A stretch of DNA of 64,000 bases, taken from Lactiplantibacillus songbeiensis (GTDB lineage Bacteria > Bacillota > Bacilli > Lactobacillales > Lactobacillaceae). The stretch covers positions 62,001 through 126,000 of the forward strand of contig NZ_BJDL01000001.1 of NCBI RefSeq assembly GCF_005405125.1, given 5' to 3'. Position numbers and translations under genes: made by a program. The stretch's first letter is position 1. The number at the start of each line of letters is the position of its first letter. The notes under the pieces are model-generated. The model was given only the letters and a program-made list of their open reading frames with translations. It was not told the origin of the DNA and did not search any database. Below are positions 2,292 to 45,918 of the stretch, piece after piece.

Positions 2292-2442
2292 TTGCCACTC
2301 TGGTTGGCCCAGAATCGGCTGGAACGTGGTGGCCACGTTTTCGAGCCAAAGTACGGTCTCGAAAGCCGGGCTTTATCTAAGTCGAAAACCACGACTAAGA
2401 TAAACGACACCACTGAGCCGATTCTGGGCCGCCCGTCGTTAA
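2292..2442 (+). repeat. F1 structured repeat, copy A (forward)
   Basis: First of twelve copies of a roughly 150-bp intergenic element. The outer stem CCCAGAATCGGCT/AGCCGATTCTGGG is perfect (13 bp). Internal hairpins are TTTCGAG/CTCGAAA and TTTATCTAAGTCG/CGACTAAGATAAA. Invariant parts shared by most copies are GGAACGTGGTGGCCACGTTT, AGCCGGGCTT and ACGACACCACTGAGC. This copy is single and lies between the ABC operon and the 3' end of a surface-protein gene. Little else is recognisable in 2202-2539. Confidence 0.85.
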
Positions 2443-2539
2443 TTAACCGCTAACTTCTAGACTACTCAATATTTTATTCCAGCAGTTGAAAAACTAACCA
2501 GCAAATGGCAACTTTAATCGACATCAACCATAATCTGAT

Positions 2540-3796
2540 TTAGTTACGGCGACGCTTGCTTTCAATCCAGGTTCCTAATGTACCTAGCAAAAGCAGCACA
2601 CCGGCCCAGCTACCAACTTGCGTGGACTTTTCAACCGTTTGTGGCAATTGCTGACCCGCTTTGATAACTGGCTTGGCTGGTTCAGTAGTTGGCGTTAGCT
2701 TAGTTGCCTGAGTTGATACAACTGCTTGCTGCTCGGAAATTTCAGCATCACCAGTTTGACCGGTCACTGTGGCTGGCTTAGTACCAATAACTGTAGGTTT
2801 CACCTGATGTTCAGGATCTGGCTGAACATTTGGTTTCGTCGCCGGCTGTGTCGGCTGAGGTTGCGTCACGGTTGGCTTAGGTTGAGGCGTTGGCGCTGGT
2901 TGTACCGTCGTTGGTGGCGTAGTCGGCGTCACTGGTTCAGTTGGCGCAACTGCCTGCAAGGTCAACGCGACCATCTTCGCCCGACCATCATTCGTTTGCA
3001 ACGTAACCGTATAATGACCCGCTTGCGTGAAATCAACCTGACTGAAATCTGGTCTAACCGTTACCGCTTGACCAAACTTATCAGTCGCCTGAGCTTGAAA
3101 ATCAGTCACTGTTGGCCGACTACCACCAAGCGTCATCGTATAATCAGCTGCTGTAAAGCTTTGCCGATTAGCTAAGACATGTAACATTACCTGCTTGATT
3201 TGTTTAGCAGCCGTTAAGGTCACTTGATAATCACCGGCTCGGTTAAAATCAACTTTGCTCAAATCAACGGTTACCGGCATCGCCGTCCCAGCTTCAGTCG
3301 TTGCTTTAGCCTGAAAATCAGTGGCAGTTGGCTGCACATCGCCCGCAATCATCGTATAATCTTGCCCAGTTAGACTGGCTTGTGACTGATATTGATACTC
3401 ATAAGTGACCGTTTGCGCGGTGGCTGTGAATTGACCCTGCGCATTACCATAGACTCGTTTCAACTGATAATGGTCAAAGGTTAATGCGGTCGTCTGATAC
3501 GTTGCACCAAGCTGACCAGTTAACGTTCGTTGATCAGCTAGCTGCTTACCGGTTGTATCAACATACCTAACCGTAATCAAAGCTCCCGCCGTTGGTGATG
3601 CAGTGTAAACATACGTAATCGTTTGTGGTTCTGCACCAAACGTTATATTCGACTGGCCAACGATTTGACTTAACTTGTAACCATCAATAGCAATTGGGGT
3701 GCTTTGATAAGTTGTGCCAATTGGCTGGGTGACGGTCTTAGCCGCTGCCAACACTTTTCCGGTCGTATCTTGATAATGAATCGTTAGGTTGCCCAT
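2540..3796 (-). pseudogene. C-terminal fragment of LPQTxE-anchored MucBP surface protein (separated by frameshift)
   Basis: This frame encodes the cell-wall end of the surface protein whose N-terminal part lies at 3846-6539. It holds two MucBP-like repeats (TIHYQDTTGK, TVRYVDTTGKQL) and two roughly 75-residue Ig-like repeats (DYTM...PTATDFQAKA and DYTMTLGGSRPTVTDFQAQA). A Pro/Thr/Gln-rich wall spanner follows, then the sorting signal LPQTVEKST, a membrane segment and a KRRRN tail. The frame can be read backwards without a stop through VYDNQARTLTYHYTQDPIA, overlapping the end of the upstream frame. One extra base near 3855-3880 would explain the break. No ribosome binding site precedes the ATG at 3796, so independent expression is unlikely. 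Confidence 0.75.
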
Positions 3797-3845
3797 CGCT
3801 ATCGGGTCTTGCGTATAATGATACGTTAATGTCCGCGCCTGATTA

Positions 3846-6539
3846 TCATAAACGCCACTCGGTTGAGTTGGACTTAGCCACTAAGGTGTAGCCCTCAAAG
3901 GAACGAGCCGTACTCTGATAAGCGTCCCCAATCGGCCCGCTTAGTGTCGCAGTAGCCAACATTTTTTGATTGGTATCATCAAAGTAAGCCACCGTGATTG
4001 GCGCACCAATTGTTCTGGTATAAACATACGTCACCACTTGGCTGGGACTATGCAGTACGCCATCTGGTGTATCGCCCTGTTGCATTTTAAACGTATAACC
4101 TGTAATCGTTGGCTTGGTTAAATCCAAATCTGGCAATGATCGACTGAGGCCACCAACTTGATACGTATCATTCACAACACCCCGGAATGACTGTGACGGT
4201 TGCAATTCTTTTTGATTTTCATCCTGGTATTGAATCGTCACCGTTGCTGGGACCGTTTGTTGCCAGACATAGGTCCGCATCGCGCCTGGTTTATCAGTGG
4301 CTAATACTTGCGCGGCCGTCTGCAGGTCACCTTCTGGATGATGGAGTGACGCTGTGGGCGTGTGATGGCCACCATCATCGACGAGTTGCCAGTATGGCTC
4401 GACATTGATGTAAGTCCCGGTGTCGTCGGTGAGCTGTGTATGGTTGCCGGGAGCATCTGGTAAACCAATATCAGATGTTAAAATTGTATTTGGACCCATC
4501 GTCACTTTCCAAAGAGACGTACAACCTGCAAATATATTGAATAATCTTGAGTAACCCTCTACATCATGAATTTGATCCTCAGCGCCACTCATATCAATTT
4601 TGCTTAAATCAATCTCAGTTAAACTGCTACAATCATTAAACATATATGCTAGTCCAACACCTTTAGCAGCAGTAAATCCAGTCAAATTGACTGACGTTAA
4701 ACTAGTACAACCAGTAAAAAGGCTCCAAAGTATTGCTTCCTTATCAAAATTCCAATTTGAAATATTGGCAGTAACTAAACCAGTATCATGATAAAACATA
4801 AAGCGCATTGTTTCGATATTTCTAGTATCAAAATGACTAAGATCGATTGCAGTTAATGCCGTATCCTCACTAAACATTGATTCCATCATCGTTGCTGCAC
4901 CTGTACCGAATTTATCCAAACCATTTATTGTTGTTAATTCAGGACAACCTGCAAAAGTAGAATTCATATTAATTGCCACAGAATTAGTTAAAGTTCCCAA
5001 TGTTATGGTCTTTAAAAATCGATTTCGGGAAAACATAAAGCGCATATCAGTAACACTGTCCGTACTAAAGTTTTTAACAGATTTAGGTGATAAATCTAAG
5101 GATGTTAAAGCAGTATAGTCAAACATATTTCCCATATTAGTAACCTTAGACGTATCAAAGTTACTGATATTCAACGAATTCAGGTGCTCATTCGTTTCAA
5201 ACATGCCTGACATGTCTGAAACCTGACTAGTATCAAAGCTAGATAAATCCAACTTTGATAACCAATACAAGTGATTAAACATTTGAGACATATTCGTTAC
5301 ATTTGACGTATTAAATTTAGCCAAATTTAGTGATGTAACACCGTCATTCATCGCAAACATTCTAGCCATATTTGTCACATGACTAGTGTCAAATCCTCCT
5401 ACAATGCTTAAATCTTGACAATTAGTTCCATAGAACATACCGCTCATATTAGTCACGCGACTAGTAACAAACTTATCACTATACTTAAGAATCGGTGAAG
5501 AGCCTCCATAGAAGTCTCCGATAGAATCGAACATGTTACTCATATCAATAACATTCGACGTATCAAAATTAGTGAGGTCAATAACCTCTATGACCCTACA
5601 ATCTTTGAACATATTAGACATATCACTCACTTGACTAGTATCTAGTTTAGTCAAATCAACATCTGCTAATTTTTCATCGCCATCAAAAAAGCTCGACATG
5701 TTCCAAGTTTTACTAGTATCCAATTTCGTTAAATCAATGGTTGTCGCATTTTTCAAGTTTGCAAACAACTCAGCTGCGTCTGGAGCAGCAACCACGCCAT
5801 CTTCAACTACCACTGAAGTGATACGCTCGTCATAGTCACCCCAAGTTGGTTTAACTATTGTTGCATTACCAGTCTGACCCGCATGAATTGTCAAAACGCC
5901 AGCCGCATTAATATCCCAATTAGCCGTCCCATAAACACCATTGGCCGGCAAGGTGAGTTCAGGCGTATCTACAGTGACCGCCGCCATCCGTGATTGTTGT
6001 AAATTTGACCGTAACCTATTACTGGCTATACCATTTGCAGCCGACTTATCATTGGCAGGTGCCGCACTGGAAACTGACGCCGCTGAGCTGACTGGTTTAG
6101 CATTACTATCACTCGTCAGCTGCCCACCAGCTGAGCTAACACTGGTTGGGACACTAGCAGCCGAACGTTCATTGTTAGATTGATCACTGACTGCACCACC
6201 AGCTTCACTCGGCATTGCTGAGCCAACCGATGACGTGCCACCAGATTGCATACTTTGGGCTGAGCCAGCTGTTGCACTTGTTTGACTCGTTCCACTAGCG
6301 GCAGCTGATTGACTACCCTGACCAGATGTCTGGCTCAACGTCACTTCTTTAGGCTGTTCACTCCCAGGCACCACTTGTTCAGGTTGACCACTAGTCGCAT
6401 TGTCAGGTGCATTCTCAGTATCAGCTTGACCAACTAGTTGGTGACCCGCTAATCCCGCAGTCATCCCAGTCGTAATCAGCAACATCGTCAACCACTGTTG
6501 GCAATCCTGATGTACATTAGTTTTAGTTTTCAAAGTCAT
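3846..6539 (-). CDS. BspA/DUF285-repeat surface protein, N-terminal part, truncated by a frameshift
   Basis: An 897-residue secreted protein. It has a signal sequence (WLTMLLITTGMTAGLAG) and a Ser/Ala/Gln-rich low-complexity stretch to about residue 190. Many DUF285 (BspA-type leucine-rich) repeats of the form FDTSxVTNMSxMF run from about 270 to 680, followed by MucBP domains (TIQYQDENQKEL, TVAYFDDTNQKM). It stops inside the last MucBP with ...NSTEWRL, whereas the +1 frame continues into MucBP, wall spanner and LPQTVE anchor at 2540. As written, the product would be secreted but not sortase-anchored. The ATG at 6539 follows a GAGGGGA site and is preferred over the TTG at 6560. Intact proteins of this type are adhesins or mucus-binding factors. 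Confidence 0.85.
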   Translation of the reverse strand: MTLKTKTNVHQDCQQWLTMLLITTGMTAGLAGHQLVGQADTENAPDNATSGQPEQVVPGSEQPKEVTLSQTSGQGSQSAAASGTSQTSATAGSAQSMQSGGTSSVGSAMPSEAGGAVSDQSNNERSAASVPTSVSSAGGQLTSDSNAKPVSSAASVSSAAPANDKSAANGIASNRLRSNLQQSRMAAVTVDTPELTLPANGVYGTANWDINAAGVLTIHAGQTGNATIVKPTWGDYDERITSVVVEDGVVAAPDAAELFANLKNATTIDLTKLDTSKTWNMSSFFDGDEKLADVDLTKLDTSQVSDMSNMFKDCRVIEVIDLTNFDTSNVIDMSNMFDSIGDFYGGSSPILKYSDKFVTSRVTNMSGMFYGTNCQDLSIVGGFDTSHVTNMARMFAMNDGVTSLNLAKFNTSNVTNMSQMFNHLYWLSKLDLSSFDTSQVSDMSGMFETNEHLNSLNISNFDTSKVTNMGNMFDYTALTSLDLSPKSVKNFSTDSVTDMRFMFSRNRFLKTITLGTLTNSVAINMNSTFAGCPELTTINGLDKFGTGAATMMESMFSEDTALTAIDLSHFDTRNIETMRFMFYHDTGLVTANISNWNFDKEAILWSLFTGCTSLTSVNLTGFTAAKGVGLAYMFNDCSSLTEIDLSKIDMSGAEDQIHDVEGYSRLFNIFAGCTSLWKVTMGPNTILTSDIGLPDAPGNHTQLTDDTGTYINVEPYWQLVDDGGHHTPTASLHHPEGDLQTAAQVLATDKPGAMRTYVWQQTVPATVTIQYQDENQKELQPSQSFRGVVNDTYQVGGLSRSLPDLDLTKPTITGYTFKMQQGDTPDGVLHSPSQVVTYVYTRTIGAPITVAYFDDTNQKMLATATLSGPIGDAYQSTARSFEGYTLVAKSNSTEWRL

Positions 6540-6560
6540 TATAATAACGTCCCCTCGCAA

Positions 6561-6864
6561 TTAATTAACTTGTTTAACTCAACTAAATGTTAACACATCG
6601 ATCATTAAAATAGTTAACTATAATTATAGCCATATAAGCTACCACGTCATTTTCATGAATTAAGGTGATCGTAACAAGGTTTAGTTTGATAATTGAAAAA
6701 TTAAAACGTTATTTTTAATAATTTTTTTAATTTTAAAAACCAGCATTTACTGAGAGTTACCCTAAAAATCTAATGTCTCTCACATTGCATTGTTGCCTCA
6801 GACACCGTATAGTCAACCTATCATCAGCTAGCAATCAATCTCACCGCTAAATAACTAGTAGAAA
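6561..6864. promoter_or_regulatory. AT-rich divergent intergenic region
   Basis: This stretch separates the surface-protein gene (minus) from a small membrane protein gene (plus). A minus-strand TATAAT at 6623-6628 with a weak ATGACG hexamer 16 nt upstream could be the surface-gene promoter. The remainder is very AT-rich with poly-T and poly-A runs. I see no other feature. Confidence 0.35.
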
Positions 6865-6876
6865 CGAGGCCTGCAC

Positions 6877-7080
6877 TTGAAATTTTTAAAACAACTTAAA
6901 GCAATCCGCCGTCAATCTATCATTCTGGACCTAACCCTTATTAGTAGTATCGGCCTGATAATCACGCTGATTGGTAGAAGCACCTACACGGCTGCACGTC
7001 ATTATTTTCTGTTAGCTGTCATTTCAACAGCCATCTTCTTCAGCTGGTGGCTCTATCTAGTTATTCATTCAAGAAACTAA
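6877..7080 (+). CDS. Small two-helix membrane protein of unknown function
   Basis: A 67-residue frame starting with TTG at 6877, with a GAGG site 9 nt upstream. A basic N-terminus (MKFLKQLKAIRRQ) is followed by two hydrophobic segments, about residues 18-33 and 45-62. I do not recognise the family. It stands alone, convergent with the glycosyltransferase gene, and shares a bidirectional terminator with it. The clear start site and its own terminator support it being real. Confidence 0.55.
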   Translation: MKFLKQLKAIRRQSIILDLTLISSIGLIITLIGRSTYTAARHYFLLAVISTAIFFSWWLYLVIHSRN

Positions 7081-7146
7081 AAATAGCAGTGCGACCAGCT
7101 AAGCCGACCACCAATGGCCACTTAACTCGTCTCACTGCTATTTTAA
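7081..7146. terminator. Bidirectional terminator between convergent genes
   Basis: AAAATAGCAGTG and CACTGCTATTTT form a 12-bp stem with U-rich or A-rich flanks on both sides, serving the plus-strand membrane gene and the minus-strand glycosyltransferase. Confidence 0.8.
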
Positions 7147-7149
7147 TTA

Positions 7150-8007
7150 CTATTCAACTACTTGTTTTAAGCTCGCTAATAAGCGTTGTAACTGTTGCTG
7201 ATAATTCAAAAACAACCCCGTAAACTTACCATCGCTGCTAGCATCCCAAGGCTTCGGTGTTCCACAGTAATGTAGAATCACCGTATTCGTCATCACCCAA
7301 TGAATATCATGCTGTGTTAGATTGCGCGTCTGATAGATCAAATATTTACGGGTATCATAGTTCCAGATCTCTTCAGGAATCTCTAAAATATCGGTACCAT
7401 ACAAGAAGTTCAGAATATCTTGATCTGGCAAAATCAATTCACTTTCATGCGTTTCAATCGCGTTCGTAATATCATTAAGCCTAATCTTAGCACGGGCTTG
7501 ATCCAAATCAATCACCAAGACACCCGAGTTAAAGTAACTAGTCGTCGTGCCTAATCGTAGCTGATTCACACTATCGACTAGCTTGGTCACCCCACGATGC
7601 GCCGCAGCGGCCAACATATGACCAGCTAAGTCCAGCTCCCATAATGGTCGTAACGAATTGATCACCAACAAATCCGGATCTAAATAGATCACGCGTTTCA
7701 CTTCACGCGGGAGAATTTCACCACTTAATAAGCGGAAATACATCTCTTTAGGGTACCGTTTAATCAACGGTACGCCCGCCGTGAAGTCCGCGTCAACGGG
7801 CTCGTTACTGAACTGCCAGCCGAAACTTGCTGTCAGTTGTGCCACCGCGGCCACTTCCGCTGGCGTCAAACTCGCATGCAACAGCCACAGATGAACTCGT
7901 TCACCCGGATTATTGACATGCACCGAGTACAGCATCACTTTGAGCGGCGCCAAGTAGCCCGCATTCAACGTTACTAGTAAATTAATCTCATCAGTCAAAA
8001 TGTCCAC
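7150..8007 (-). CDS. Glycosyltransferase family 8 protein
   Basis: A 285-residue GT8 enzyme. The N-terminus (INLLVTLNAGYLAPLKVMLYSV) matches the nucleotide-sugar binding start of the family. The DxD metal motif is in YLDPDLLV near residue 100. A second metal-binding histidine may be in LHYCGTPKPW near residue 250, and GVLVIDLDQ and LPDQDILN are family-typical. Such enzymes transfer glucose or galactose to lipopolysaccharide-like, teichoic acid or surface-protein acceptors. The acceptor here cannot be inferred. The hydrolase gene 11 nt upstream is probably co-transcribed. Confidence 0.88.
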   Translation of the reverse strand: MDILTDEINLLVTLNAGYLAPLKVMLYSVHVNNPGERVHLWLLHASLTPAEVAAVAQLTASFGWQFSNEPVDADFTAGVPLIKRYPKEMYFRLLSGEILPREVKRVIYLDPDLLVINSLRPLWELDLAGHMLAAAAHRGVTKLVDSVNQLRLGTTTSYFNSGVLVIDLDQARAKIRLNDITNAIETHESELILPDQDILNFLYGTDILEIPEEIWNYDTRKYLIYQTRNLTQHDIHWVMTNTVILHYCGTPKPWDASSDGKFTGLFLNYQQQLQRLLASLKQVVE

Positions 8008-8017
8008 CGACTTTCGT

Positions 8018-8965
8018 TTATTCAGTCAGACCGACTTGTTCGGTCAAGAATTCACTCAACACCGCTTGATATCGGTCAGGATGCGTCCGCACTGCCTCAA
8101 CATGACCGGCTTCCGGATCAATATATAAACTCTTCGTTTGTGTTAATTGATTGTATAAATGATGGGCATTACGCACCGGCACCGTCTGATCATGACTACC
8201 ATGAATCATTAAGATTGGTAGGCCGCCTTTTTGAACTTGCTGTAAGATTTCGCCGTCACTGAACGCATAGCCCGCACTGCTTCGGGCTAACCGGTTCGCC
8301 ATTGGCATAATTAGACTTGCCGGTAAGTGAAACTTATGACTAATCCGGAACTTTGCTTCATCATAAAGATTAGCATAGCCACTGTCTTCCACAATCGCCT
8401 TTACATTATCCGGCATCGGTTCACCGCTAGTCGCCATCACCGTCGCGGCACCCATCGAGATGCCCATTAGCACCAACTCCGTATCTGGTCCCAATTGTTC
8501 TAACGCCATGGCAATCCAACGCTGATAATCCAGCCGATCTAACCAACCATAGCCAATCGTATGGCCCTCACTATCGCCAAACGCTCGGGCATCTGGTAAT
8601 AAGACCTCATATCCCAAGCTCATAAAGATGCGGGCATACGGAATCATTTGTTCGCGTGAATGTCCCAAGCCATGTGCTAGAATGGCTAAGCGGCCATTTG
8701 CCTTAGGATTCGGTAAGTAGGTGGCGACTAAGTTCAAGCCGTCAAATGACTGGACCAACCATTGTTGCTTAGGTTGTTTGTCATACCAGAAATTTTCAAT
8801 CTCCGTATTTTCTGAACGGGACAACGCTTGCCCCCGTTGCTTTTGATCATCACTGACATGCATCGCCACATTATAGGCGACCGCGCCGCCAAGCAACGAA
8901 CCCGTGTAGGTGGCCGCACCTACAACCCCGGCCAATTTCAAACTCAATTTCGTTGTTGCTTTCAT
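8018..8965 (-). CDS. Membrane-anchored alpha/beta hydrolase
   Basis: A 315-residue alpha/beta-hydrolase-fold protein. It has an N-terminal hydrophobic segment (LAGVVGAATYTGSLLGGAVAY), an oxyanion region AHGLGHSRE, nucleophile serine in GISMGAA, acid residue near MIHGSHDQTVP and a histidine in PEAGHVEA. It resembles the YqkD/BAAT-like hydrolases common in lactobacilli, usually with unknown substrate. The ATG at 8965 is chosen because AGGTGG sits just upstream; an ATG at 8980 would overlap that site. The product is probably bound to the outer face of the membrane. Confidence 0.85.
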   Translation of the reverse strand: MKATTKLSLKLAGVVGAATYTGSLLGGAVAYNVAMHVSDDQKQRGQALSRSENTEIENFWYDKQPKQQWLVQSFDGLNLVATYLPNPKANGRLAILAHGLGHSREQMIPYARIFMSLGYEVLLPDARAFGDSEGHTIGYGWLDRLDYQRWIAMALEQLGPDTELVLMGISMGAATVMATSGEPMPDNVKAIVEDSGYANLYDEAKFRISHKFHLPASLIMPMANRLARSSAGYAFSDGEILQQVQKGGLPILMIHGSHDQTVPVRNAHHLYNQLTQTKSLYIDPEAGHVEAVRTHPDRYQAVLSEFLTEQVGLTE

Positions 8966-9076
8966 CGTCACCCACCTCATTTCTTACCTTTAATTTAACC
9001 ATAATTGACCGAGTTTGTGCATGATTCACGACTATCTTTCAGGATTTTTAACTTGGTAATAGCCTTTTAATCAATA

Positions 9077-9114
9077 TAAAAAGCACCACCAACTAAACCT
9101 AGTCAGTGATGCCA
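9077..9114 (-). terminator. Terminator of ispE
   Basis: On the minus strand GCATCAC...GTGGTGC with an inner ACTA/TAGT pairing is followed by TTTTTA, 5 nt after the ispE stop. Confidence 0.8.
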
Positions 9115-9118
9115 ACAA

Positions 9119-9985: not shown

Positions 9986-10232
9986 GCGTCTCACCCTCTT
10001 CATCGGTTAATTAGTTGACTTGCCGAAGTGACTTGATTTGAATAACTATTAGTCAGCAAACATGTATAGTAACGATTACTTTAGCTAGCTAATTCTAGTC
10101 AAACTAACCAATCTTAGCCGCTAACTGTCAGTATTCACTGCGTTTATCCTGGGCAGTCAACATTGGCCCAACCAGAATGACAACCAACCGCAAGTCTTAT
10201 TTCTTATAATTATACTAATTTAAGGGCAAAAT

Positions 10233-10256
10233 AAAAAGACCTTGCTTGGGGGTCTT
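10233..10256 (-). terminator. Terminator of veg
   Basis: On the minus strand AAGACC and GGTCTT form the stem around a CCCAAGCAA loop, followed by TTTTATTTT. It lies about 25 nt after the veg stop. Confidence 0.8.
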
Positions 10257-10282
10257 AATATTGGTGATTCGCGCAATGCGAA

Positions 10283-11531: not shown

Positions 11532-11542
11532 TAATGACTCCT

Positions 11543-12901: not shown

Positions 12902-13080
12902 ACGCTTGGTACTAGTTAAAATTGCCGCCTACCGGTTGTTTTCTAAAATGCTGGAACGCTGTGAATCATTTTGAAGCCAAAGGTCAGTCTTCAAAACTGA
13001 CCTTGGTCTAAGTCCGAGAAATTCGCTCAAGCTAAGGCCAACGACATGGCTGAGCATTTTAGAAAACAACCTTGCGGCTA
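12902..13080 (+). repeat. F1 structured repeat, copy B (long-stem subtype, forward)
   Basis: A divergent F1 subtype with a perfect 19-bp outer stem, GGTTGTTTTCTAAAATGCT against its complement. Internal hairpins are TTTTGAAG/CTTCAAAA and CTTGGTCTAAG/CTAAGGCCAACG. It shares a preceding TACGCTTGGTACTAGTT with copy I at 41802. It lies upstream of tatD in inverted orientation to copy C. The 190 nt between B and C shows no other feature. Confidence 0.85.
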
Positions 13081-13270: not shown

Positions 13271-13429
13271 TAGCGTAGGGCGGGCCGGATGATGCTCAGT
13301 GGTGTCGTTTGACTTGGTCGAGTGGTTCTTTCTCGGCCTTAGTCAAAGCCCGGCTTGCGAGACCGCTCTTCGGCTCGCAAACGTGGCCACCACGTTCCAG
13401 CATCAATCCGGACCAACCGTAGCGGCAAT
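13271..13429 (-). repeat. F1 structured repeat, copy C (reverse)
   Basis: Read on the minus strand: outer stem around CCGGATTGATGCT/AGCATCATCCGG with one bulged base, hairpin TTGCGAG/CTCGCAA and hairpin TTTGACTAAGG.../...CCAAGTCAAA. It lies just beyond the metG terminator and forms an inverted pair with copy B. Confidence 0.85.
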
Positions 13430-17371: not shown

Positions 17372-17524
17372 TTGCCACTCTGGTTGGTCCAGAATCGGCT
17401 GGAACGTGGTGGCCGCGTTTATGAGCCACAGGGCGGTCTCATAAGCCGGGCTTTGACTAACCCGGAAAATCACCGGCTAAGTCAAACGACACCACTGAGC
17501 CAATTCTGGCCCGCCCGACGTTAA
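17372..17524 (+). repeat. F1 structured repeat, copy D (forward, in the regulator's 5' leader)
   Basis: Outer stem CCAGAATCGGCT/AGCCAATTCTGG (one mismatch), hairpin TTATGAG/CTCATAA and hairpin TTTGACTAACCCGG/CCGGCTAAGTCAAA. It starts 51 nt from the regulator start codon, between that codon and the cre/-10 region at 17589-17616. Confidence 0.85.
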
Positions 17525-17820: not shown

Positions 17821-17977
17821 AGCGTAGGGCGGGCTGGATGACGCTCAGTGGTGTCGTTAGACTTAGGCTGGGTGCTTTTTCCCCAGCCTTAGACTAAGCC
17901 CGGCTTGTGAGACCGCTCTTTGGCTCACAAACGTGGCCACCACGTTCCAGCGTCAATCCAGACCAACCGAAGCGGCT
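17821..17977 (-). repeat. F1 structured repeat, copy E (reverse)
   Basis: Read on the minus strand: outer stem TGGATTGACGCT/AGCGTCATCCA with one bulge, hairpin TTGTGAG/CTCACAA, and hairpin TTAGTCTAAGGCTGG/CCAGCCTAAGTCTAA. It lies just after the oadA terminator. D and E form an inverted pair bracketing the regulator promoter. Confidence 0.85.
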
Positions 17978-23710: not shown

Positions 23711-23869
23711 TTGTCGCTCCGGAAAATCTGGATTGACGCTGGAACGTGGTGGCCACGTTTGTGAGCCATAGTACGGTCTCACAAGCCGGGCTTTTACTAG
23801 TCCGGGATAGATCGCCCGGCCAAGTAAAATTTCACCACTGAGCATCAATCCAGATTTTCCTGCGCTAGC
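23711..23869 (+). repeat. F1 structured repeat, copy F (forward)
   Basis: The outer stem extends to GGAAAATCTGGATTGA with a perfect 16-bp partner. Hairpins are TTGTGAG/CTCACAA and TTTTACTAGTCCGGG/CCCGGCCAAGTAAAA. It lies 31 nt upstream of the citC start. Confidence 0.85.
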
Positions 23870-23943: not shown

Positions 23944-24097
23944 TTAACGCCGGGCGGGCCGGACAATGCTCAGTGGTGTCGTTTATCTTAGTCGATGATT
24001 TTTCGACTTAGATAAAGCCCGGCTTGGAAGACCGCACTTCGGCTTCCAAACGTGGCCACCACGTTCCAGCATTGCTCCGGACCAACCAGAGTGGCAA
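23944..24097 (-). repeat. F1 structured repeat, copy G (reverse)
   Basis: Read on the minus strand: outer stem CCGGAGCAATGCT/AGCATTGTCCGG with one bulge, hairpin TTGGAAG/CTTCCAA and hairpin TTTATCTAAGTCGAA/TCGACTAAGATAAA. It starts 12 nt after the stop of the OadG-like gene. F and G are an inverted pair separated by 74 nt, inside what may be one operon. Confidence 0.85.
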
Positions 24098-34249: not shown

Positions 34250-34280
34250 GATTTGAGAACCTCCTTTGCGTTAGTTTGCT

Positions 34281-34400
34281 GAAACGTGTTCGGCCCGACT
34301 GCGTCCTCCGCTTGCTACGCCAAGCAGCCATACCGGAAGTTCACCGGTATCACTGTTTGGCTAGGCAATGCTCAGACGCAACCCGTCGAACCTCTCACTC
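34281..34400 (-). repeat. F2 structured repeat, copy a
   Basis: A roughly 120-bp element. On the minus strand it starts right after the TAG of the upstream gene and ends in GAACACGTTTCA. Stems are TGCGTC/GACGCA, AGCCAA/TTGGC and a 7-bp inner hairpin ATACCGG/CCGGTAT with loop TGAACTT. Conserved unpaired parts are GAGCATTGCCTAGC and GCGTAGCAAGCGGA. Confidence 0.8.
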
Positions 34401-35359
34401 TATCTAGTCGTAAACGGCACATGCAATCGGGCAAACAAATCCTTAACCTGCATCCCATACAATTCCTTAAAGAAGTCATCACTCTGCTTTTCAGCTGGTG
34501 CTGGTATTACGAAGGCATTTTGTCGGTCACCTTTATTCAAGCCGATAAAAGCCCGCGTGTGTTGTTCCGTTTCAATCATTTCTGAATGATAAATATCGAA
34601 CAACTGACGCACTTCTAGTCGTTGTTGTCGGTCACTAAGCACGCTTTGCATCGTCACGAATTCACTGCCATGCAATAATGGCAAATCCCAGTCCAACATT
34701 TGATCATCGAACGCCTTGAATAATTTAACAACTGTCCGCCGCATGGCAAATGGCGTTTCAACCGGTTTGGTATCAATCACTGCGTACAACTTTTTAGCTG
34801 CGGCCCATGACTTTGGAAAGTCCGCTTCAATCTTAGCCAAACGTTGATCACCTAAGTCACCATTAAAGAAGACCAATAAGTCCGTTAACGTTAATAGCCG
34901 TAACGTCATCATCGCATCGTCTTGATTAGGGTCTTCAGGATCAATCGTGGCATAAATACCTTTGAAGTATAAATCTTCAATCTCGCTATCGATTAAGTCA
35001 TGTTCTCGTTGCTTTTGGACAATCAACACATGGGCAACGGCATCATAAAGTTCAGTCGCAATCGCCATCAATTGTTCATCTAATTGGGCATTGTTCGTTG
35101 TTAAGTTAAACGTCATCTGTGGGAAACCTTGCAACAATAGTAAGAGGTGCATGATTTCGTGTGACGCCGTATAGTTAGGCGCCATAATGTCACTGACATG
35201 CACTTCAATATCGCCATTCTGCATCAATTGGGTCGCTTGGTCATGGCGTACATAACCGGCCTTTTGGTCACCGAATGTAACGGTCACGTTACCTGGGAAA
35301 ATGGAATTTGTCGCACTTAATAAGTCTTTTACTTGTTGTGATACTTTTAATTCAGTCAT
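34400..35359 (-). CDS. IpaB/EvcA-like protein with HExxH motif
   Basis: A 319-residue protein. SHEIMHLLLLLQG near residue 82 contains HExxH, suggesting a zinc-dependent site. Otherwise it is helical and soluble. Lactobacillus homologues are often labelled IpaB/EvcA family, a name that says little about function. It starts 1 nt after the HMG-CoA reductase stop (ATG at 35359, site AAAGGATG) and is probably co-transcribed with mvaA and the Ppx/GppA gene. Peptidase activity is inference. Confidence 0.7.
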   Translation of the reverse strand: MTELKVSQQVKDLLSATNSIFPGNVTVTFGDQKAGYVRHDQATQLMQNGDIEVHVSDIMAPNYTASHEIMHLLLLLQGFPQMTFNLTTNNAQLDEQLMAIATELYDAVAHVLIVQKQREHDLIDSEIEDLYFKGIYATIDPEDPNQDDAMMTLRLLTLTDLLVFFNGDLGDQRLAKIEADFPKSWAAAKKLYAVIDTKPVETPFAMRRTVVKLFKAFDDQMLDWDLPLLHGSEFVTMQSVLSDRQQRLEVRQLFDIYHSEMIETEQHTRAFIGLNKGDRQNAFVIPAPAEKQSDDFFKELYGMQVKDLFARLHVPFTTR

Positions 35360-35360
35360 C

Positions 35361-37575: not shown

Positions 37576-37746
37576 AACACCACGCTCGCTTTTCATTTTA
37601 AGTCACTCGGTTATTTTAGCTTAAGGCGATCATATCATTCAAAAGTCGCGCCTTAAAACCAAACATTCTGTTGTATTTATTTTACCATTAAATTCCCAGC
37701 GTGTGATGGTCAACGGTCGCGTCTCACCAGACCGGTTAGTCCATCA

Positions 37747-37783
37747 AAAAAGCCCAACACACCACTTGTATGCTGGACTTTCT
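37747..37783 (-). terminator. Terminator downstream of dus
   Basis: On the minus strand AAGTCCAGCA pairs with TGTTGGGCTT (two mismatches), followed by TTTT. It lies about 300 nt after the dus stop, so the dus transcript would include repeat H in its 3' UTR. Between 37784 and 37928 nothing else is recognisable. Confidence 0.7.
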
Positions 37784-37928
37784 TACAAATAATTCAGTTT
37801 TCAGACTAGATTGAATTTGCATCTACCAACTAGCCGCTAAGCCGCCATGAATCATTTTAGAAACCAACAACTCGACTAATCTTGTACCTTAAACTAAACA
37901 TGCACATCGTTCATAAAGTGCCAGTTAA

Positions 37929-38081
37929 TTAACGCCGGGCGGGTCAAAATTGGCTCAGTGGTGTCGTTTATCTTAGTCGGTGGTTTTCCGACTTAGATAA
38001 AGTCCGGCTTGGAAGACCGCAGTTTGGCTTCCAAACGTGGCCACCACGTTCCAGCCGATTCTGACCCAACCAGAGTGGCAA
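37929..38081 (-). repeat. F1 structured repeat, copy H (reverse, single)
   Basis: Read on the minus strand: outer stem GGTCAGAATCGGCT/AGCCAATTTTGACC (pairs with G-U wobbles), hairpin TTGGAAG/CTTCCAA and hairpin TTTATCTAAGTCGG/CCGACTAAGATAAA. It begins 6 nt after the dus stop. Confidence 0.85.
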
Positions 38082-38086
38082 TCCGC

Positions 38087-39082: not shown

Positions 39083-39265
39083 GTTTCAGATGCTCCTCTA
39101 GCTAATTAATTATGGGATTAAGTTTAGCATTAATCGCTAGCACTTGCAGAGTCAATGTTTTAGGTAATTCCAACAAGCAAGTTCTCGGTTCAAGCAATAC
39201 ATTAGGTGCTTCCCACCGCCACCAAATACTAGTCAATTTCCCATAAAAAATCTTCACAATAAAAA

Positions 39266-39320
39266 AGTCATGCATATTCGACCAAATCAACAAAGATCCG
39301 GTCGAATATGCATGACTAAT
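39266..39320 (-). terminator. Strong terminator after the Abi gene
   Basis: On the minus strand AGTCATGCATATTCGACC pairs perfectly with its 18-nt complement and is followed by TTTTTTATTG. It lies 57 nt after the Abi stop. Confidence 0.9.
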
Positions 39321-39376
39321 CAATATTAGAATGACATATATTATTATGACACAAGATAGATTAATCTTGACAAAGC

Positions 39377-40258
39377 TTACTTTTTTAATACCTCACACCA
39401 ATCTTCAGGAAATCCCCAGTCGTTTAAACTGACATTTTCCAAGGTTCTTGTATAATCACAGAGTTCATCAATACAAGAATTATAATATGCTGAACTGAAG
39501 CACAGTTCGCGTAAAATATAAAAAGCTGGAAAAACGGTTGCTTTCCTTAATTCTGGACAAGATGTTATATCTGTTTTAAAAAATTTAGGCGAAGTAGAAA
39601 AGGTCCGTTTAAATGTCCGACTATTATGTGCACAGCAGTTACGCGCCAATGTTAAATAATGTAGCCAGTTCTCCAACCTTTTATTAGTTAAGCCACCATA
39701 TGTGCCTCTAACGAAATCCTTTTGATCTTCAGTTTGTAAATCTGAAAAGAACTTAGAAAATGTTCCTAGCGAACACATCTCAAATACAACCCATAACGGA
39801 AATGTATTCTCGTAGTCATCTCGATAATGTTTAACATATAATTCATTACGCGTCCCAGCCTTCTTTGCATCATCACTAATTTTATCTAAAAAATCAGTTT
39901 TATAGTCAATTGCGCGGAAGAATCCATCATCCGCATAGCAGAGAGGATCATATTTTAACGCTAAAAAATTACCTAATCTTGACTTAATCTGTGTTTCGAC
40001 ACGTACGATTAAACTAAGTAACAACATATGCATTTTTTGATCCAACATGTAGGCACCATACACTTGCTCAAATGTCACATTATTATCAAAGTGATCCTTT
40101 GAATCATAGAATGGAAAGCAGTACCCTTTAAACTTGAAATAACCAATATTTTCAAGTTTTTGTTTTACTTCTTCTGAGTTAGTAACTTTCAACCCTCGTT
40201 GGAACAAAATATCGACTTGCTGCCCAACTGTTGTTGCGGCACGTTCATATTTTCCCAT
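39377..40258 (-). CDS. Abi family (Abi_2) abortive infection protein
   Basis: A 293-residue protein of the Abi_2 family (AbiD/AbiF type). Conserved features are ILFQRGLKV, YFKFKGYCFPFYD near residue 50, IVRVETQIKSRL and the C-terminal RNCCAHNSRTF. The last is the RxxxxH motif of HEPN-type ribonucleases. Such proteins abort phage infection by RNA cleavage. The gene is visibly more AT-rich than its neighbours, stands alone between dus and trpS and has its own strong terminator, which suggests horizontal gain. TTGGAG precedes the ATG at 40258; the frame is open to 40336. Confidence 0.85.
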   Translation of the reverse strand: MGKYERAATTVGQQVDILFQRGLKVTNSEEVKQKLENIGYFKFKGYCFPFYDSKDHFDNNVTFEQVYGAYMLDQKMHMLLLSLIVRVETQIKSRLGNFLALKYDPLCYADDGFFRAIDYKTDFLDKISDDAKKAGTRNELYVKHYRDDYENTFPLWVVFEMCSLGTFSKFFSDLQTEDQKDFVRGTYGGLTNKRLENWLHYLTLARNCCAHNSRTFKRTFSTSPKFFKTDITSCPELRKATVFPAFYILRELCFSSAYYNSCIDELCDYTRTLENVSLNDWGFPEDWCEVLKK

Positions 40259-40379
40259 TATATTTTCTCCAATGTACAAAAAAGTCCTCACTTGGGCCAC
40301 ATTGCTAAGAGGTGTGTGAGGTGCTGTTGATATCATAGTACCTTACACTCTAATTTTTTTCAAGCATAGCATCACTCTA

Positions 40380-40426
40380 ATAAAAAAATTGCCGCCGCTT
40401 TTTTTAAGTGACGACAATTTTTATTA
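40380..40426 (-). terminator. Terminator of trpS
   Basis: On the minus strand AAATTGTCGTC pairs imperfectly with GGCGGCAATTT, followed by TTTTATTAG, a few bases after the trpS stop. Confidence 0.75.
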
Positions 40427-40430
40427 AGCC

Positions 40431-41462
<1,032 letters not shown>

Positions 41463-41475
41463 CTATTTATTGATA

Positions 41476-41705
41476 CAAAAAAATCCCAATCAACTATTAC
41501 TAGTCAATTAGGACGCATTACCGTGGTACCACCTAAATTGCAGAAACTGTTTCTGCCACTCATTACGCCGATAAGGGTGGGTACCCGGTCTAAACTCCGA
41601 ATCTCCAAAAAGCCAATTCGATTGTCCCTCCTAGCTTGCAGCAATTGCTAGGTCTCTGTTGGTTGGACGCCCTACCGTTCTTTTCTTCAACGATTATTTG
41701 ATACT
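41476..41705 (-). promoter_or_regulatory. T-box riboswitch of trpS
   Basis: On the minus strand the T-box sequence TAGGTGGTACCACGG (41521-41535) precedes a terminator made of TCCTAATTGACTA and TAGTTGATTGGGA with TTTTTTT (41477-41514). The preceding 170 nt hold Stem I and other helices. Uncharged tRNA-Trp would stabilise the antiterminator. Confidence 0.92.
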
Positions 41706-41801
41706 AGTGTAAGCGTTACGCGCGCTGGTGTCAAAGTTAGTTTTTCAAGTAATGATTTTTGTTGAAATCTTCAAAAATCATTAGCGTTTATCTAATTTTA
41801 A

Positions 41802-41982
41802 TACGCTTGGTACTAGTTGAAATTGCCGCCTGCCGGTTGGATTCTAAAATGCTGGAACGCCATGGGCCATTTTGAAGCCAAAGTGCGGTCTTCAAAACTG
41901 GCCTTGGCCTAAGTCCGAGCACCCCACTCGCACTAAAGCCAACGACACGGCTGAGCATTTTAGAATCCAACCTCTCGGCTAA
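41802..41982 (+). repeat. F1 structured repeat, copy I (long-stem subtype, forward)
   Basis: Partner of copy B. The 19-bp perfect outer stem is GGTTGGATTCTAAAATGCT with its complement. Compared with copy B, two adjacent bases change on one arm and their partners change on the other. It is preceded by the same TACGCTTGGTACTAGTT. Confidence 0.85.
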
Positions 41983-42029
41983 CTAACAGGAATCAAATAA
42001 TTAATCGTTAATTTTTTAATTTCCGTTAG

Positions 42030-42183
42030 TTAACGCCGAGCGGTCCAGAATTGGCTCAGTGGTGTCGTTTATCTTAGTCGGTGATTTTCCGACTTAGATA
42101 AAGCCCGGCTTGTGAGACCGGTCTGTGGCTCGCAAACGCGGCCACCACGTTCCAGCCGATTCTGGGCCAACCAGAGTGGCAAT
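42030..42183 (-). repeat. F1 structured repeat, copy J (reverse)
   Basis: Read on the minus strand: outer stem CCCAGAATCGGCT/AGCCAATTCTGG, hairpin TTGCGAG/CTCACAA and hairpin TTTATCTAAGTCGG/CCGACTAAGATAAA. It lies 39 nt after the nitrilase stop and forms an inverted pair with copy I across a 47-nt AT-rich spacer. Confidence 0.85.
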
Positions 42184-42221
42184 TTAAGCCAACTAGCAAC
42201 AAATCAATTTTATCCTAAATG

Positions 42222-42998
42222 CTAATACAACTCAGTCCGCCGATCCGCAAAGACTGGCATACTCCCCCGAACGGCAGCCACCTGCTGCAAGTCTATTGTC
42301 GCGGTCACCACAGTTGGTTGATCCTGCGTTTCGGCGACCACTTGCCCCAGCGGATCAATCACTAATGATTGACCGCCAAAGTCATTATCAGGATCACTAC
42401 CGACGCGATTAACTGCCACAACGTAGGCCTGATTTTCAATGGCCCGTGCTTGCAACAGGAGCCGCCATTGTGGCAGGCGCACGGTTGGCCACTCGGCTGA
42501 GACAAAAATTACTTGTGGTCCCTGGGCAGCTTGCTTGCGTAACCATTCGGGGAAACGGATGTCATAACAGATGACGCCCATCGCTGGCACCTCATCGAGT
42601 ACAAATCGATTCTCAGTCCGACCAGCTGTAATATAGCGGTCTTCACGCATCAATCCGAAACGATGGACTTTATCGTAGCGACTCAGTAATTTCCCTTGCC
42701 GATTAACAACTAACATTTCATTATAGTAGTGACCGTTGCGGGCCACCGCCACCGAACCACCTACGATATTAATCTGGTATTGCCGTGCCAAATCAGTTAG
42801 AACCGTTTGCGTCCGAACGCCATTGAAATCTGCCAATTGGTCAAGCGCTGTTAAGGCATAGCCGGTATTCCACATTTCTGGCAAAACGACCACATCCGCC
42901 TGCTGAACAGCGGCCTGTTTGATTGCGGCCGCAACGCGACGATAATTCTCATCTGGATCACCGAACTTAATATCAATTTGTGCTAACGCTACTTGCAT
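42222..42998 (-). CDS. Nitrilase-superfamily carbon-nitrogen hydrolase (omega-amidase-like)
   Basis: A 258-residue hydrolase with the Glu-Lys-Cys triad: E in VVLPEMWNTGY, K in SRYDKVHRFG and C in GVICYDIRFPEW. It most resembles the YafV/Nit2 branch that deaminates omega-amides such as alpha-ketoglutaramate or repairs deaminated glutathione. The exact substrate is not determined by sequence. Confidence 0.9.
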   Translation of the reverse strand: MQVALAQIDIKFGDPDENYRRVAAAIKQAAVQQADVVVLPEMWNTGYALTALDQLADFNGVRTQTVLTDLARQYQINIVGGSVAVARNGHYYNEMLVVNRQGKLLSRYDKVHRFGLMREDRYITAGRTENRFVLDEVPAMGVICYDIRFPEWLRKQAAQGPQVIFVSAEWPTVRLPQWRLLLQARAIENQAYVVAVNRVGSDPDNDFGGQSLVIDPLGQVVAETQDQPTVVTATIDLQQVAAVRGSMPVFADRRTELY

Positions 42999-43170
42999 CT
43001 CGTCACCCGTTTTTTATTAGAATTATTAAAATAATCTTAGAATAAAGTGGCATTAGTTGCAAGCACATTCATTCGTTAAAATGCAGGCGCTTTGATTGAC
43101 AGCGCTCCTAAATCCGCCTAGAATTGTTCAAGCTATTTACACGAGAATTTAAACGGGAGGCTGGCTGCCA

Positions 43171-45480
43171 ATGACAACACCAGATCAAGAACAACAACAA
43201 GAACAGCGCCGAGTAGATACGGTCGTTAAACAGATCAAGGCTCGCGCTAAAGAGACCGACCGTTTGGTGGCTAAGGCCCACCATGATACCGACATCATTC
43301 AAAAAAACTACGGTGACAACAACTCCGTCAATACCTTTGAAGTTGATGACCGGATTGAAACCAACGCCGAACTGCAACAACAAAAACAAATGGTCGAACG
43401 AGCTGTCGAATCTGAAGCCATCTTAAATCGACAAGTTGGTGTTTTAAAAGACCTCAGCAACTCACCTTACTTTGGCCGCATTGACATCCAAGATGACCCC
43501 GCAGATGATCCCGAACGCCTCTACATCGGGACCGCTTCGTTTGTCGATGAACATCAAAACTTTCTCGTCTACGACTGGCGCGCCCCAATTTCTTCCGTTT
43601 ACTATAATGGGACGCTCGGCAAAGTCGCCTACCAAGCACCCGCTGGCGAACAAACAACCGAGCTATTGAAGAAACGCCAATTCCAGATTGATCATGGTCA
43701 GATCAACAACATGTTCGATACGAACGAGACCGTTGGTGATGAGATTCTGCAATCCGTTCTCGGAGAACAAAACGATGCCTATATGCAAAACATCGTGGCC
43801 ACGATTCAAAAAGAACAAAATGATATCATTCGTGATACTTACAGTGACCTATTAGTCGTCCAAGGCGTCGCCGGGTCTGGAAAGACCTCCGCGATCTTAC
43901 AGCGGATCGCCTTTCTGTTATACCATTCACGCGCTTCACTCGAAGCTGACCAGATGGTGTTATTCTCACCTAACCGGCTATTCAGCCACTATATTTCGGA
44001 GGTCTTGCCGAGTTTAGGGGAACGTAATATGCGCCAAGTGACGTTAGCGGAATTCCTCAGTGCCCGTTTTCAAGGCCTAACCGTCCAAAGTCTCTTTGAA
44101 CGCTACGAAAGTGACCAACAAGCCCCAGCGACCAGTGCGGCGATTCGTGACTTTCAAGAAGGGGCCGCCTTTATGGCCCAAGTTGACGCCTATTGTCACC
44201 AGTTACCGGCTGACAAGCTGCGGTTCACTAACATCGTCTTCAACGGCGATGTCTTCTTCACCCGCGCAGAAATCACAGCGATTGCCACTAGCTTACCCAC
44301 TGCCATGCAACCAGCTGACCGGTTCTTAGCTATCAAGAACACGTTGATCAAACGACTTAAACACCGCATCGATCATGAAGCTCAAGCTGATTGGGTCAAC
44401 GAACAGATCGACCAATTATCGGATGAAGCCTATCACGACTTACTTGGTGACAAACGCCGTGGCGCCTTTCAATCGTTGGATGATGAAGTCTTCTATATTG
44501 GTAAGCAAATCGTAACCAAGCGCTTGCGCCAAGTTTATGATGCCATTTATAACGGCTATTTCTTAGATACTTATGAACAATACAATGATTTCTTAGCTCA
44601 AGTCGACTGTCCAGCCGCGGTTACCGAAACCGATTGGAACGCACGAATCAAAGCCTTCCGTGCCGGAATTGAATACCACCGGATTGACTTAATTGACTGC
44701 GCGCCGCTCTTATTATTACGCGATATTTTAACCGGTAGCGGACAAAATCGACGCATGCAATACCTATTCGTCGATGAGATGCAAGATTACTCGTTAGCGC
44801 AATTGCTTTACATTAAGCACGCCTTTCCACTTGCCAAGTTCACCCTACTAGGTGACAGTGAGCAAGCCCTATTCAAAGGAATCGAACAACCTAAACAGTT
44901 ACTAGAACGTTTACGCGATGCCTTTCAGGTACGGCGGGCTAATTTAATTACGTTGAATAAGAGTTATCGGTCGACCTTACAAATCACGAATTTCGCTAAA
45001 GCGCTTTTACCAGATGGCGACCAGATTCAAGCCTTTACACGAGAGGGCGCCTTACCGAAAGTGATGATTCGTTACGATGAAGATAGTGCCTTACAAGGTT
45101 TACTGACGGAAGTTCATCAGCAGCTTGAACACACCCACACGGTCGCTGTTTTGACACGGAATATGGCAGATAGCAAGAAAGTCTACCAATTCTTGAAACA
45201 TCATACCGTGGCGACATTGATGGCGGATAGTGACCGGACGATGCCACAGGGCGTCATTGTCTTGCCGATTTACTTAGCTAAAGGGTTAGAATTCGATGCC
45301 GTCATTGCCTATGACATTTCCGCTCAGAACTACCCAGATGCGAATTCAGTTGGCTTACTCTATACGATTGCGTCACGGGCAATGCACCACCTAACGCTAC
45401 TCAGCGTTGGTGATGTCTCACCATTAATCGTACATCTTGATCCCACGTTATTTACCATTGAACATCAAGTCCGCGTCTAA
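43171..45480 (+). CDS. HelD-like UvrD/Rep-family helicase
   Basis: A 769-residue SF1 ATPase. A long N-terminal coiled-coil-like region (1-110) precedes Walker A VVQGVAGSGKTSAIL near residue 232, FVDEMQDYS (Walker B), LGDSEQALFKGIEQP, LNKSYRST and a C-terminal YLAKGLEFDAVI. The layout fits HelD, which binds RNA polymerase and recycles stalled complexes. GGGAGG precedes the ATG. It is the first plus-strand housekeeping gene in a mostly minus-strand region and ends in its own terminator. Confidence 0.88.
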   Translation: MTTPDQEQQQEQRRVDTVVKQIKARAKETDRLVAKAHHDTDIIQKNYGDNNSVNTFEVDDRIETNAELQQQKQMVERAVESEAILNRQVGVLKDLSNSPYFGRIDIQDDPADDPERLYIGTASFVDEHQNFLVYDWRAPISSVYYNGTLGKVAYQAPAGEQTTELLKKRQFQIDHGQINNMFDTNETVGDEILQSVLGEQNDAYMQNIVATIQKEQNDIIRDTYSDLLVVQGVAGSGKTSAILQRIAFLLYHSRASLEADQMVLFSPNRLFSHYISEVLPSLGERNMRQVTLAEFLSARFQGLTVQSLFERYESDQQAPATSAAIRDFQEGAAFMAQVDAYCHQLPADKLRFTNIVFNGDVFFTRAEITAIATSLPTAMQPADRFLAIKNTLIKRLKHRIDHEAQADWVNEQIDQLSDEAYHDLLGDKRRGAFQSLDDEVFYIGKQIVTKRLRQVYDAIYNGYFLDTYEQYNDFLAQVDCPAAVTETDWNARIKAFRAGIEYHRIDLIDCAPLLLLRDILTGSGQNRRMQYLFVDEMQDYSLAQLLYIKHAFPLAKFTLLGDSEQALFKGIEQPKQLLERLRDAFQVRRANLITLNKSYRSTLQITNFAKALLPDGDQIQAFTREGALPKVMIRYDEDSALQGLLTEVHQQLEHTHTVAVLTRNMADSKKVYQFLKHHTVATLMADSDRTMPQGVIVLPIYLAKGLEFDAVIAYDISAQNYPDANSVGLLYTIASRAMHHLTLLSVGDVSPLIVHLDPTLFTIEHQVRV

Positions 45481-45493
45481 CTACCGGGCACTA

Positions 45494-45534
45494 AAAAACA
45501 TCTTCAGCTAATTTAGCCGAAGATGTTTTTTTAA
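45494..45534 (+). terminator. Terminator of the HelD-like gene
   Basis: ACATCTTCAGCTAA pairs with TTAGCCGAAGATGT (one mismatch), followed by TTTTTTTA. Confidence 0.88.
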
Positions 45535-45559
45535 TAAGTTAAGTTTTGATTGATGCAAA

Positions 45560-45712
45560 TTGCCACTCTGGTTGGCCTAGAATTGGCTGGAACGTGGTGG
45601 CCACGTTTTTGAGCCACAGAGCAGTCTCAAAAGCCGGGCTTTATCTAAGTCGGAAAACCACCGACTAAGATAAACGACACCACTGAGCCAATTCTAGTCC
45701 GCCCGGCGTTAA
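45560..45712 (+). repeat. F1 structured repeat, copy K (forward)
   Basis: Outer stem CTAGAATTGGCT/AGCCAATTCTAG is perfect and differs from copy A at two pairs by double substitutions. Hairpins are TTTTGAG/CTCAAAA and TTTATCTAAGTCGG/CCGACTAAGATAAA. It lies after the HelD terminator. Confidence 0.85.
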
Positions 45713-45760
45713 AAAGTCTTACTTTCAAGTTAGTCGTCAACCATATTAATCCGATCATTC

Positions 45761-45918
45761 AGCGTAGGGCGGGCTGGATGACGCTCAGTGGTGTCGTTTG
45801 ACTTGAGCTGGGGGATTTTTCCCAGTTCTAGTCAAAGCCCGGCTTGAAAGACCGCTTCTCAGGCTTTCAAACGCGGCCACCACGTTCCAGCGTCAGTCCA
45901 GACCAACCGTAGCGGCAA
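45761..45918 (-). repeat. F1 structured repeat, copy L (reverse)
   Basis: Read on the minus strand: outer stem TGGACTGACGCT/AGCGTCATCCA with one bulge, hairpin TTGAAAG/CTTTCAA and a long third hairpin starting TTTGACTAGAACTGGG. It lies 12 nt after the antiporter stop, forming an inverted pair with K between two convergent genes. Confidence 0.85.

What the first reader, a model, noticed from the sequence alone, without database searches (positions are those of the whole stretch)
2292..45918. F1: a twelve-copy structured intergenic repeat with extensive covariation
Twelve roughly 150-180 bp copies (at 2292, 12902, 13271, 17372, 17821, 23711, 23944, 37929, 41802, 42030, 45560, 45761) share near-invariant linkers (GGAACGTGGTGGCCACGTTT, AGCCGGGCTT, ACGACACCACTGAGC), while three stems vary freely yet stay paired. 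In the second stem alone, eight versions occur with the matching complement: TCGAG, ATGAG, GTGAG, TTGAG, GCGAG, GGAAG, GAAAG and TGAAG; copy J has one mismatch. The third stem swaps TTTATC/GATAAA, TTTGAC/GTCAAA, TTTTAC/GTAAAA and TAGTC/GACTA. This is the mark of selection on a folded RNA or single-stranded DNA, not of a decaying repeat. Conserved loops with variable stems would suit a protein-binding RNA, a REP-like DNA element moved by a transposase encoded elsewhere, or a transcript-end processing signal. I know of no named family with these sequences, but cannot search.
Basis: seen in the sequence. Interest (0 to 1): 0.85.

Follow-up and report, generated by a model that had tools for sequence, protein, structure and literature searches.

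The report
Folding mobile DNA repeat of lactobacilli
The twelve repeats are halves of a small mobile DNA element, present in well over a hundred copies in this Lactiplantibacillus genome, whose ends fold into a T-shape that evolution preserves mostly by strict DNA-type base pairing, so it looks like a shape read on DNA rather than on RNA.

Summary
In detail: 12 copies, one fold, strong covariation (25 of 51 pairs change on both sides). The copies are mostly halves of a bigger unit: convergent pairs of unlike copies. The young unit is about 400 bp: terminal inverted repeat ACGCTTGGTGCTAGTTG, T-shaped module, small hairpin, T-shaped module, inverted repeat. It moves. One insertion faces an empty site in a close relative, and 18 of 36 elements have 7-10 bp target duplications against 0.6 expected. 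The module occurs in 51 of 201 genomes and 10 of 40 genera sampled from the family. Once a few columns with fixed mismatches are set aside, G-U pairs are rare and no commoner than A-C, unlike T-box or tRNA controls. This points to a DNA fold, not RNA. A separate IS sits in the same hairpin loop at 15 of 15 junctions. The REP/RAYT reading fails: 8 of 19 carrier genomes lack a Y1 transposase and both non-carriers have one. It is a new family of a known kind (MITE-like), with an unusual DNA-level fold.

The parts
2296..2439 (+). copy A, T-shaped module type 1, no partner found; lies at the edge of a segment (about 2300-6612) that is absent at the matching place in relative G193
12902..12918 (+). 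terminal inverted repeat of copy B (ACGCTTGGTACTAGTTA)
12928..13076 (+). copy B, module type 3
13273..13424 (-). copy C, module type 2, convergent partner of B
17376..17521 (+). copy D, module type 1
17822..17974 (-). copy E, module type 2, convergent partner of D
23715..23865 (+). copy F, module type 2
23947..24093 (-). copy G, module type 1, convergent partner of F; in G193 the arm of F runs straight into G (read by eye)
37932..38077 (-). copy H, module type 1, no full partner found
41803..41819 (+). left terminal inverted repeat of element I/J
   Evidence: G000:C1:103803-103819
41829..41977 (+). copy I, module type 3
41978..42032 (.). central spacer; in the sister element L009 it folds as a small hairpin
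42033..42178 (-). copy J, module type 1, convergent partner of I
42191..42207 (-). degenerate right terminal inverted repeat of element I/J
45564..45709 (+). copy K, module type 1
45762..45914 (-). copy L, module type 2, convergent partner of K
9067..9075 (.). empty target site TTAATCAAT: here relative G193 carries a complete pair with both terminal repeats, flanked by TTACTCAAT and TTAATCAAT

Best explanation
A family of short non-autonomous mobile elements (MITE-like). The full unit in Lactiplantibacillus is about 390-405 bp: a terminal inverted repeat, a T-shaped module of about 150 nt, a central hairpin, a second unlike module facing the first, and the other inverted repeat. Shown by sequence comparison: it inserts into new sites with 7-10 bp target duplications, and modules that lie close together nearly always face each other. 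Inferred: a transposase supplied in trans (type unknown, probably of the DDE kind that leaves such duplications) moves it. Also inferred: each module must fold as DNA (an extruded hairpin, or a single strand during replication) to be recognised by the mover or a host factor, and this keeps the arms complementary while a few unpaired bases stay fixed. Inferred from general knowledge: the two modules differ because two equal ones would make a long perfect palindrome, which bacteria delete. The exposed hairpin loop is used by another IS as its landing site.
For: Mobility: insertion against an empty site; 18 of 36 two-ended elements with flanking repeats versus mean 0.58, maximum 4, in 2000 re-pairings; 181 terminal repeats in the genome at up to 2 mismatches against 0 for the reversed control pattern. 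Architecture: close neighbours (under 700 bp) are 17 convergent, 1 tandem, 0 divergent in sampled own-genome DNA, and 30 convergent, 2 tandem, 0 divergent in the named loci. Fold: a change on both sides in 46 of 49 pairs (43 rows, nine genera; shuffled mean 31.4) and in 45 of 49 (122 distinct rows; shuffled mean 33.8). DNA rather than RNA, with stated columns dropped: Watson-Crick 5974, G-U 76, A-C 124 (141 copies) and 5182, 59, 90 (124 copies); T-box leaders of the same family G-U 46, A-C 6; tRNA stems G-U 16, A-C 0. Fixed unpaired bases, such as A opposite A in CTAAG/CTAAG (118 of 118 and 111 of 120 rows), argue against mere palindrome mending. As single-stranded DNA both strands of copy K and the plus strand of copy I fold at z -6 to -8. 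Loop exposure: 15 of 15 IS junctions fall in one loop. 55 of 56 sampled copies lie mostly outside ORFs that cover 84% of that DNA.
Against: No autonomous copy and no mover was found. A few fixed or wobble-like pairs exist: G-T at one internal-loop position (131 of 140 rows), T-G in 85 and T-A in 28 rows at another, and one stem pair with G-T in 31 of 123 rows. I dropped four columns and three; with nothing dropped G-U is 381 and A-C 199 in the first set and 211 and 191 in the second (summed from the rows). In one search one of the five covariation measures fails: further pair types 126 against a shuffled mean of 129.4 (435 of 500 shuffles reach it). The T-box control was filtered on standard pairs, G-U counted in, which favours G-U. 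Terminal repeats and duplications were shown only for Lactiplantibacillus; in other genera the unit's ends are not settled. 61 of 124 copies in named loci and 21 of 56 in own DNA have no neighbour within 700 bp.
Confidence: 0.68

Rival explanations
1. A structured RNA: the module is transcribed from one strand and bound by a protein or used as an untranslated-region signal; the mobile unit merely spreads it.
For: Strong covariation with fixed unpaired bases; fixed G-T positions; in L115 two of three copies lie, as read by eye, between a stop codon and a terminator-like hairpin.
Against: G-U is not commoner than A-C once the columns named are set aside, unlike T-box and tRNA; both orientations occur in the same intergenic gap; no Rfam match at the copies.
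Confidence: 0.15
2. Palindrome mending without selection: template switching at hairpins copies one arm onto the other, so arms co-vary for mechanical reasons.
For: Mending would also give Watson-Crick-only pairs; fused units and inner deletions are seen between close relatives.
Against: It should also erase the conserved mismatches, yet A opposite A and the GGAAC internal loop stay fixed across the named genera.
Confidence: 0.12
3. A REP/BIME-like element moved by a Y1 (HUH) transposase such as a RAYT.
For: High copy number, intergenic, inverted pairs, folded, targeted by an IS as REPs are (PMC1525189, passages read).
Against: Y1_Tnp has no match in 8 of 19 carrier genomes, among them G193 with at least 148 copies, and matches in both genomes without copies; terminal repeats and 7-10 bp duplications.
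Confidence: 0.05

Closest known systems
Bacterial MITEs, e.g. QMITE2 of Coxiella (PMC10969869, passages and a legend read)
   Same: Non-coding, terminal inverted repeats, duplications of 7-9 bp, intergenic, strongly folding
   Different: Here two large T-shaped modules covary, with conserved internal loops, in an alignment from nine genera; the passages read describe no such module
REP/BIME with RAYT (PMC2817692, abstract and passages read)
   Same: High copy number, inverted pairs, hairpins, intergenic
   Different: REPs in the table rows seen are roughly 20-40 nt and mostly begin with GTAG or a like head; no Y1 link here
IS1397 and ISKpn1 inserting into REP sequences (PMC1525189, passages read)
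   Same: An IS inserts specifically into a dispersed palindromic repeat
   Different: Another IS in another bacterial group; its family (IS3-like) is judged from its end sequence only, from memory
Integron attC sites and parvovirus terminal hairpins (recalled, no call)
   Same: Function through a folded DNA strand; T-shaped in the parvovirus case
   Different: No integrase, Rep or virus gene was seen tied to the element here; none was searched for beyond Y1_Tnp

Membership tests
MITE (non-autonomous DDE-type element) | terminal inverted repeats | tested here: met
   181 copies of ACGCTTGGTGCTAGTTG at up to 2 mismatches, control 0; shown for the own genome and close relatives only
MITE (non-autonomous DDE-type element) | target-site duplication | tested here: met
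   18 of 36 elements, 7-10 bp, shuffled mean 0.58
MITE (non-autonomous DDE-type element) | no coding capacity, intergenic | tested here: met
   55 of 56 copies mostly outside ORFs of 120 aa or more
MITE (non-autonomous DDE-type element) | autonomous IS with the same ends | tested here: inconclusive
   the first 260 bases inside ten unpaired terminal repeats read as the same element or its remnants; neighbouring proteins were not identified, most of the genome was not read and three small contigs are withheld
REP/RAYT | Y1_Tnp partner tracks copy number | tested here: not met
REP/RAYT | short palindrome with GTAG-type head | tested here: not met
   about 150-nt three-way junction; no such head in the consensus, by eye
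Structured RNA family (Rfam) | match to a covariance model | tested here: not met
   none at the copies (window, four loci, where one chance match, RF02351 at 27.8 bits against a gathering score of 60, lies away from the copies)
Structured RNA family (Rfam) | G-U pairs tolerated over A-C on the sense strand | tested here: not met
   with columns dropped as told; a few fixed G-U positions are exceptions
Structured RNA family (Rfam) | transcribed | not testable with these tools
   no expression data

The most novel reading that the evidence does not exclude
The module is a DNA shape code: a three-way-junction hairpin in single-stranded or cruciform DNA, read by an unknown protein kept in many Lactobacillaceae genera, with variable stems held to Watson-Crick pairing and fixed bases at the junction, comparable in logic to attC sites or parvovirus terminal hairpins but used by a bacterial transposon-like element.
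Probability: 0.45. Interest if true: 0.8.

Novelty: new variant of a known kind. Interest (0 to 1): 0.62.

Why it matters
If right, heavy covariation in intergenic DNA is not proof of an RNA, and the G-U to A-C ratio separates the two; this family is a good test case with many copies in many genomes. It also offers a system in food bacteria for studying how folded DNA is recognised, a source of genome change in Lactiplantibacillus, and another example of an IS that homes to a dispersed palindromic repeat.

Tried and rejected
Rfam: at gathering threshold the window gave only a T-box; at E up to 1 four loci gave one chance match away from the copies. Plasmids and phages by blastn with one element as query: no match. 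Four viral contigs with a core word and one with a terminal-repeat word gave no model match; the last word lies inside an ORF. A 2.06-kb convergent pair in two genomes looked like an autonomous element but flanks an aldehyde dehydrogenase-like ORF (my reading) in two syntenic genomes. ORF lists of three loci around copies showed no transposase of interest by eye. Twenty sites with seemingly unpaired terminal repeats were fetched; several had a partner or a contig end, and in ten the first 260 bases read as the same element or remnants. Proteins beside them were not identified, so a mover nearby is not excluded. Papers: the listings of searches showed no title or abstract start that describes this element; that covers only the held open library. 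PMC2267715, PMC8632094 and PMC12306157 were searched by term only. The IS end was not found in 20 other genomes of the genus at up to 3 mismatches, nor as an exact pattern in genome contigs or viral contigs, nor by blastn in plasmids.

Full report
Check of the observation. The 12 copies are at the stated places. RNAalifold folds them into an outer stem, a lower stem (GTGGTG with CACCAC) and two inner hairpins; 25 of 51 pairs have a change on both sides. Shuffles and slid partners do not reproduce this.

Copies are mostly paired. In sampled DNA of the same genome (window and L071-L090, 56 copies at E up to 1e-12) neighbours within 700 bp are 17 convergent, 1 tandem, 0 divergent; in 80 loci from named genomes (124 copies at E up to 1e-9) 30, 2 and 0. 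21 of the 56 and 61 of the 124 copies had no neighbour that close; degenerate partners under the cut-offs are not counted.

The full unit and its movement. Setting outer flanks one under another shows a shared end, ACGCTTGGTGCTAGTTG, next to many type 1 and type 3 copies and few or no type 2 copies. It occurs 181 times in the genome at up to 2 mismatches, the reversed control 0 times. Long units measure 386-406 bp; one of them, L009, folds as one body: terminal-repeat stem, module, central hairpin, module. I took as units all pairs of ends (up to 4 mismatches, 90-700 bp apart) in the own-genome and close-relative loci: 36, of which 32 are from this genome, 3 from G193 and 1 from G149. 18 of 36 have a flanking direct repeat of 7-10 bp by a score of my own; re-pairing flanks at random gives 0.58 on average and at most 4 in 2000 trials. 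Relative G193 (88-97% identical in the aligned stretches) carries a complete unit at window position 9067-9075, where this genome has the empty site. Other differences that I read between the two genomes are inner deletions or fusions of units.

Spread. A covariance model from 24 copies finds 150 copies in this genome, which is the cap. It finds the module in 51 of 201 genomes and 10 of 40 genera sampled from the family and in 19 of 21 genomes of the genus. In a sample across the order it is in 12 of 295 genomes, one of which lies outside the family with two weak matches; the two large samples used stricter filters. Two contigs of that list have the same length (64,819 and 90,062 bases) as contigs of genomes that the tool calls same genus, so the genus is Lactiplantibacillus (inference). 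One element as query had no match on plasmids or phages.

DNA or RNA. If the folded molecule were RNA, G-U should be tolerated and A-C not. Over 141 copies, with four columns dropped, the counts are Watson-Crick 5974, G-U 76, A-C 124, other 78. Over 124 copies from named loci, with three columns dropped (under 60% Watson-Crick), they are 5182, 59, 90 and 102. One position has T-A 47, A-T 33, C-G 21, G-C 19 and no other pair in 120 rows. Controls: T-box leaders of the same family (21 of 28 fetched loci: one not given, six without a motif that I required) 273, 46, 6 and 26; 17 unique tRNAs 355, 16, 0 and 0, the zeros probably because the predictor brackets only standard pairs. Against this, the dropped columns hold most G-U cells: with nothing dropped, G-U is 381 and A-C 199 in the first set, and 211 and 191 in the second. 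They include a fixed G-T in the internal loop and a T-G/T-A position in the outer stem. The alignments were fitted to the model, so absolute pairing rates lean towards the fold. In one search, four of five covariation measures exceed every shuffle and one (further pair types) does not. I read this as a DNA-level fold with a few fixed mismatches, or a need to fold on both strands.

Fixed bases. In the named loci GGAAC in the internal loop, A opposite A within CTAAG/CTAAG, and the A-T and G-C (or A-T) pairs with the C and T beside them at the closing end of hairpin 2 are nearly invariant, while stems between them vary. Simple palindrome mending would remove such mismatches.

An IS homes to the loop. 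An IS end, TGAGGYGTACCCCAAAAGTTGGAAC, occurs 15 times, each within about 80 bases of a contig end; all 15 junctions lie in the loop of hairpin 2 of a module. The two sequence variants (7 and 8 junctions) look like the two ends of one IS, so this is about eight insertions (inference). The IS end was not found in 20 other genomes of the genus. IS1397 and ISKpn1 insert specifically into REPs (PMC1525189, passages). The IS3-like label rests on the end sequence, from memory; the inside of the IS was not read.

The mover. Y1_Tnp does not track the element: 8 of 19 carriers show no match, and both genomes without copies do. Ten unpaired terminal repeats lead into the same element or remnants. The mover is unknown.

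Verdict. A new, widespread family of MITE-like elements with a large conserved DNA fold. Membership among MITEs rests on terminal repeats, duplications and lack of genes, tested in Lactiplantibacillus only. The DNA-fold reading is the novel part and is not proven.

Noticed in passing
L216-L230 (own genome, junction near a contig end): An IS inserts in the hairpin-2 loop of the repeat at 15 of 15 junctions, 12 of them in one orientation.
   Followed up: partly
window 34275-34401, 55031-55155, 55155-55281: A second repeat family of about 125 bp with conserved blocks such as GCTTGCTACGC and GGCAATGCTCA.
   Followed up: no
window 2300-6612: Segment with two MucBP-domain proteins (one also with DUF285), absent at the matching place in relative G193.
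   Followed up: partly
window 39377-40336: Abi_2 (abortive infection-like) gene, absent at the matching place in G193.
   Followed up: partly
window 48682-48993, minus strand: T-box leader (RF00230, 100.9 bits).
   Followed up: no
L093 about 4531-5727 (G193): A TnpB-like ORF (my reading of the sequence, no search) sits between the citrate lyase ligase-like gene and the fused F/G copy.
   Followed up: no
L156, L168 (G222, another family of the order) and L157, L169 (G102): Distant weak matches (28-33 bits) that seem by eye to keep the hairpin-2 motif and may be branched differently; not folded.
   Followed up: partly
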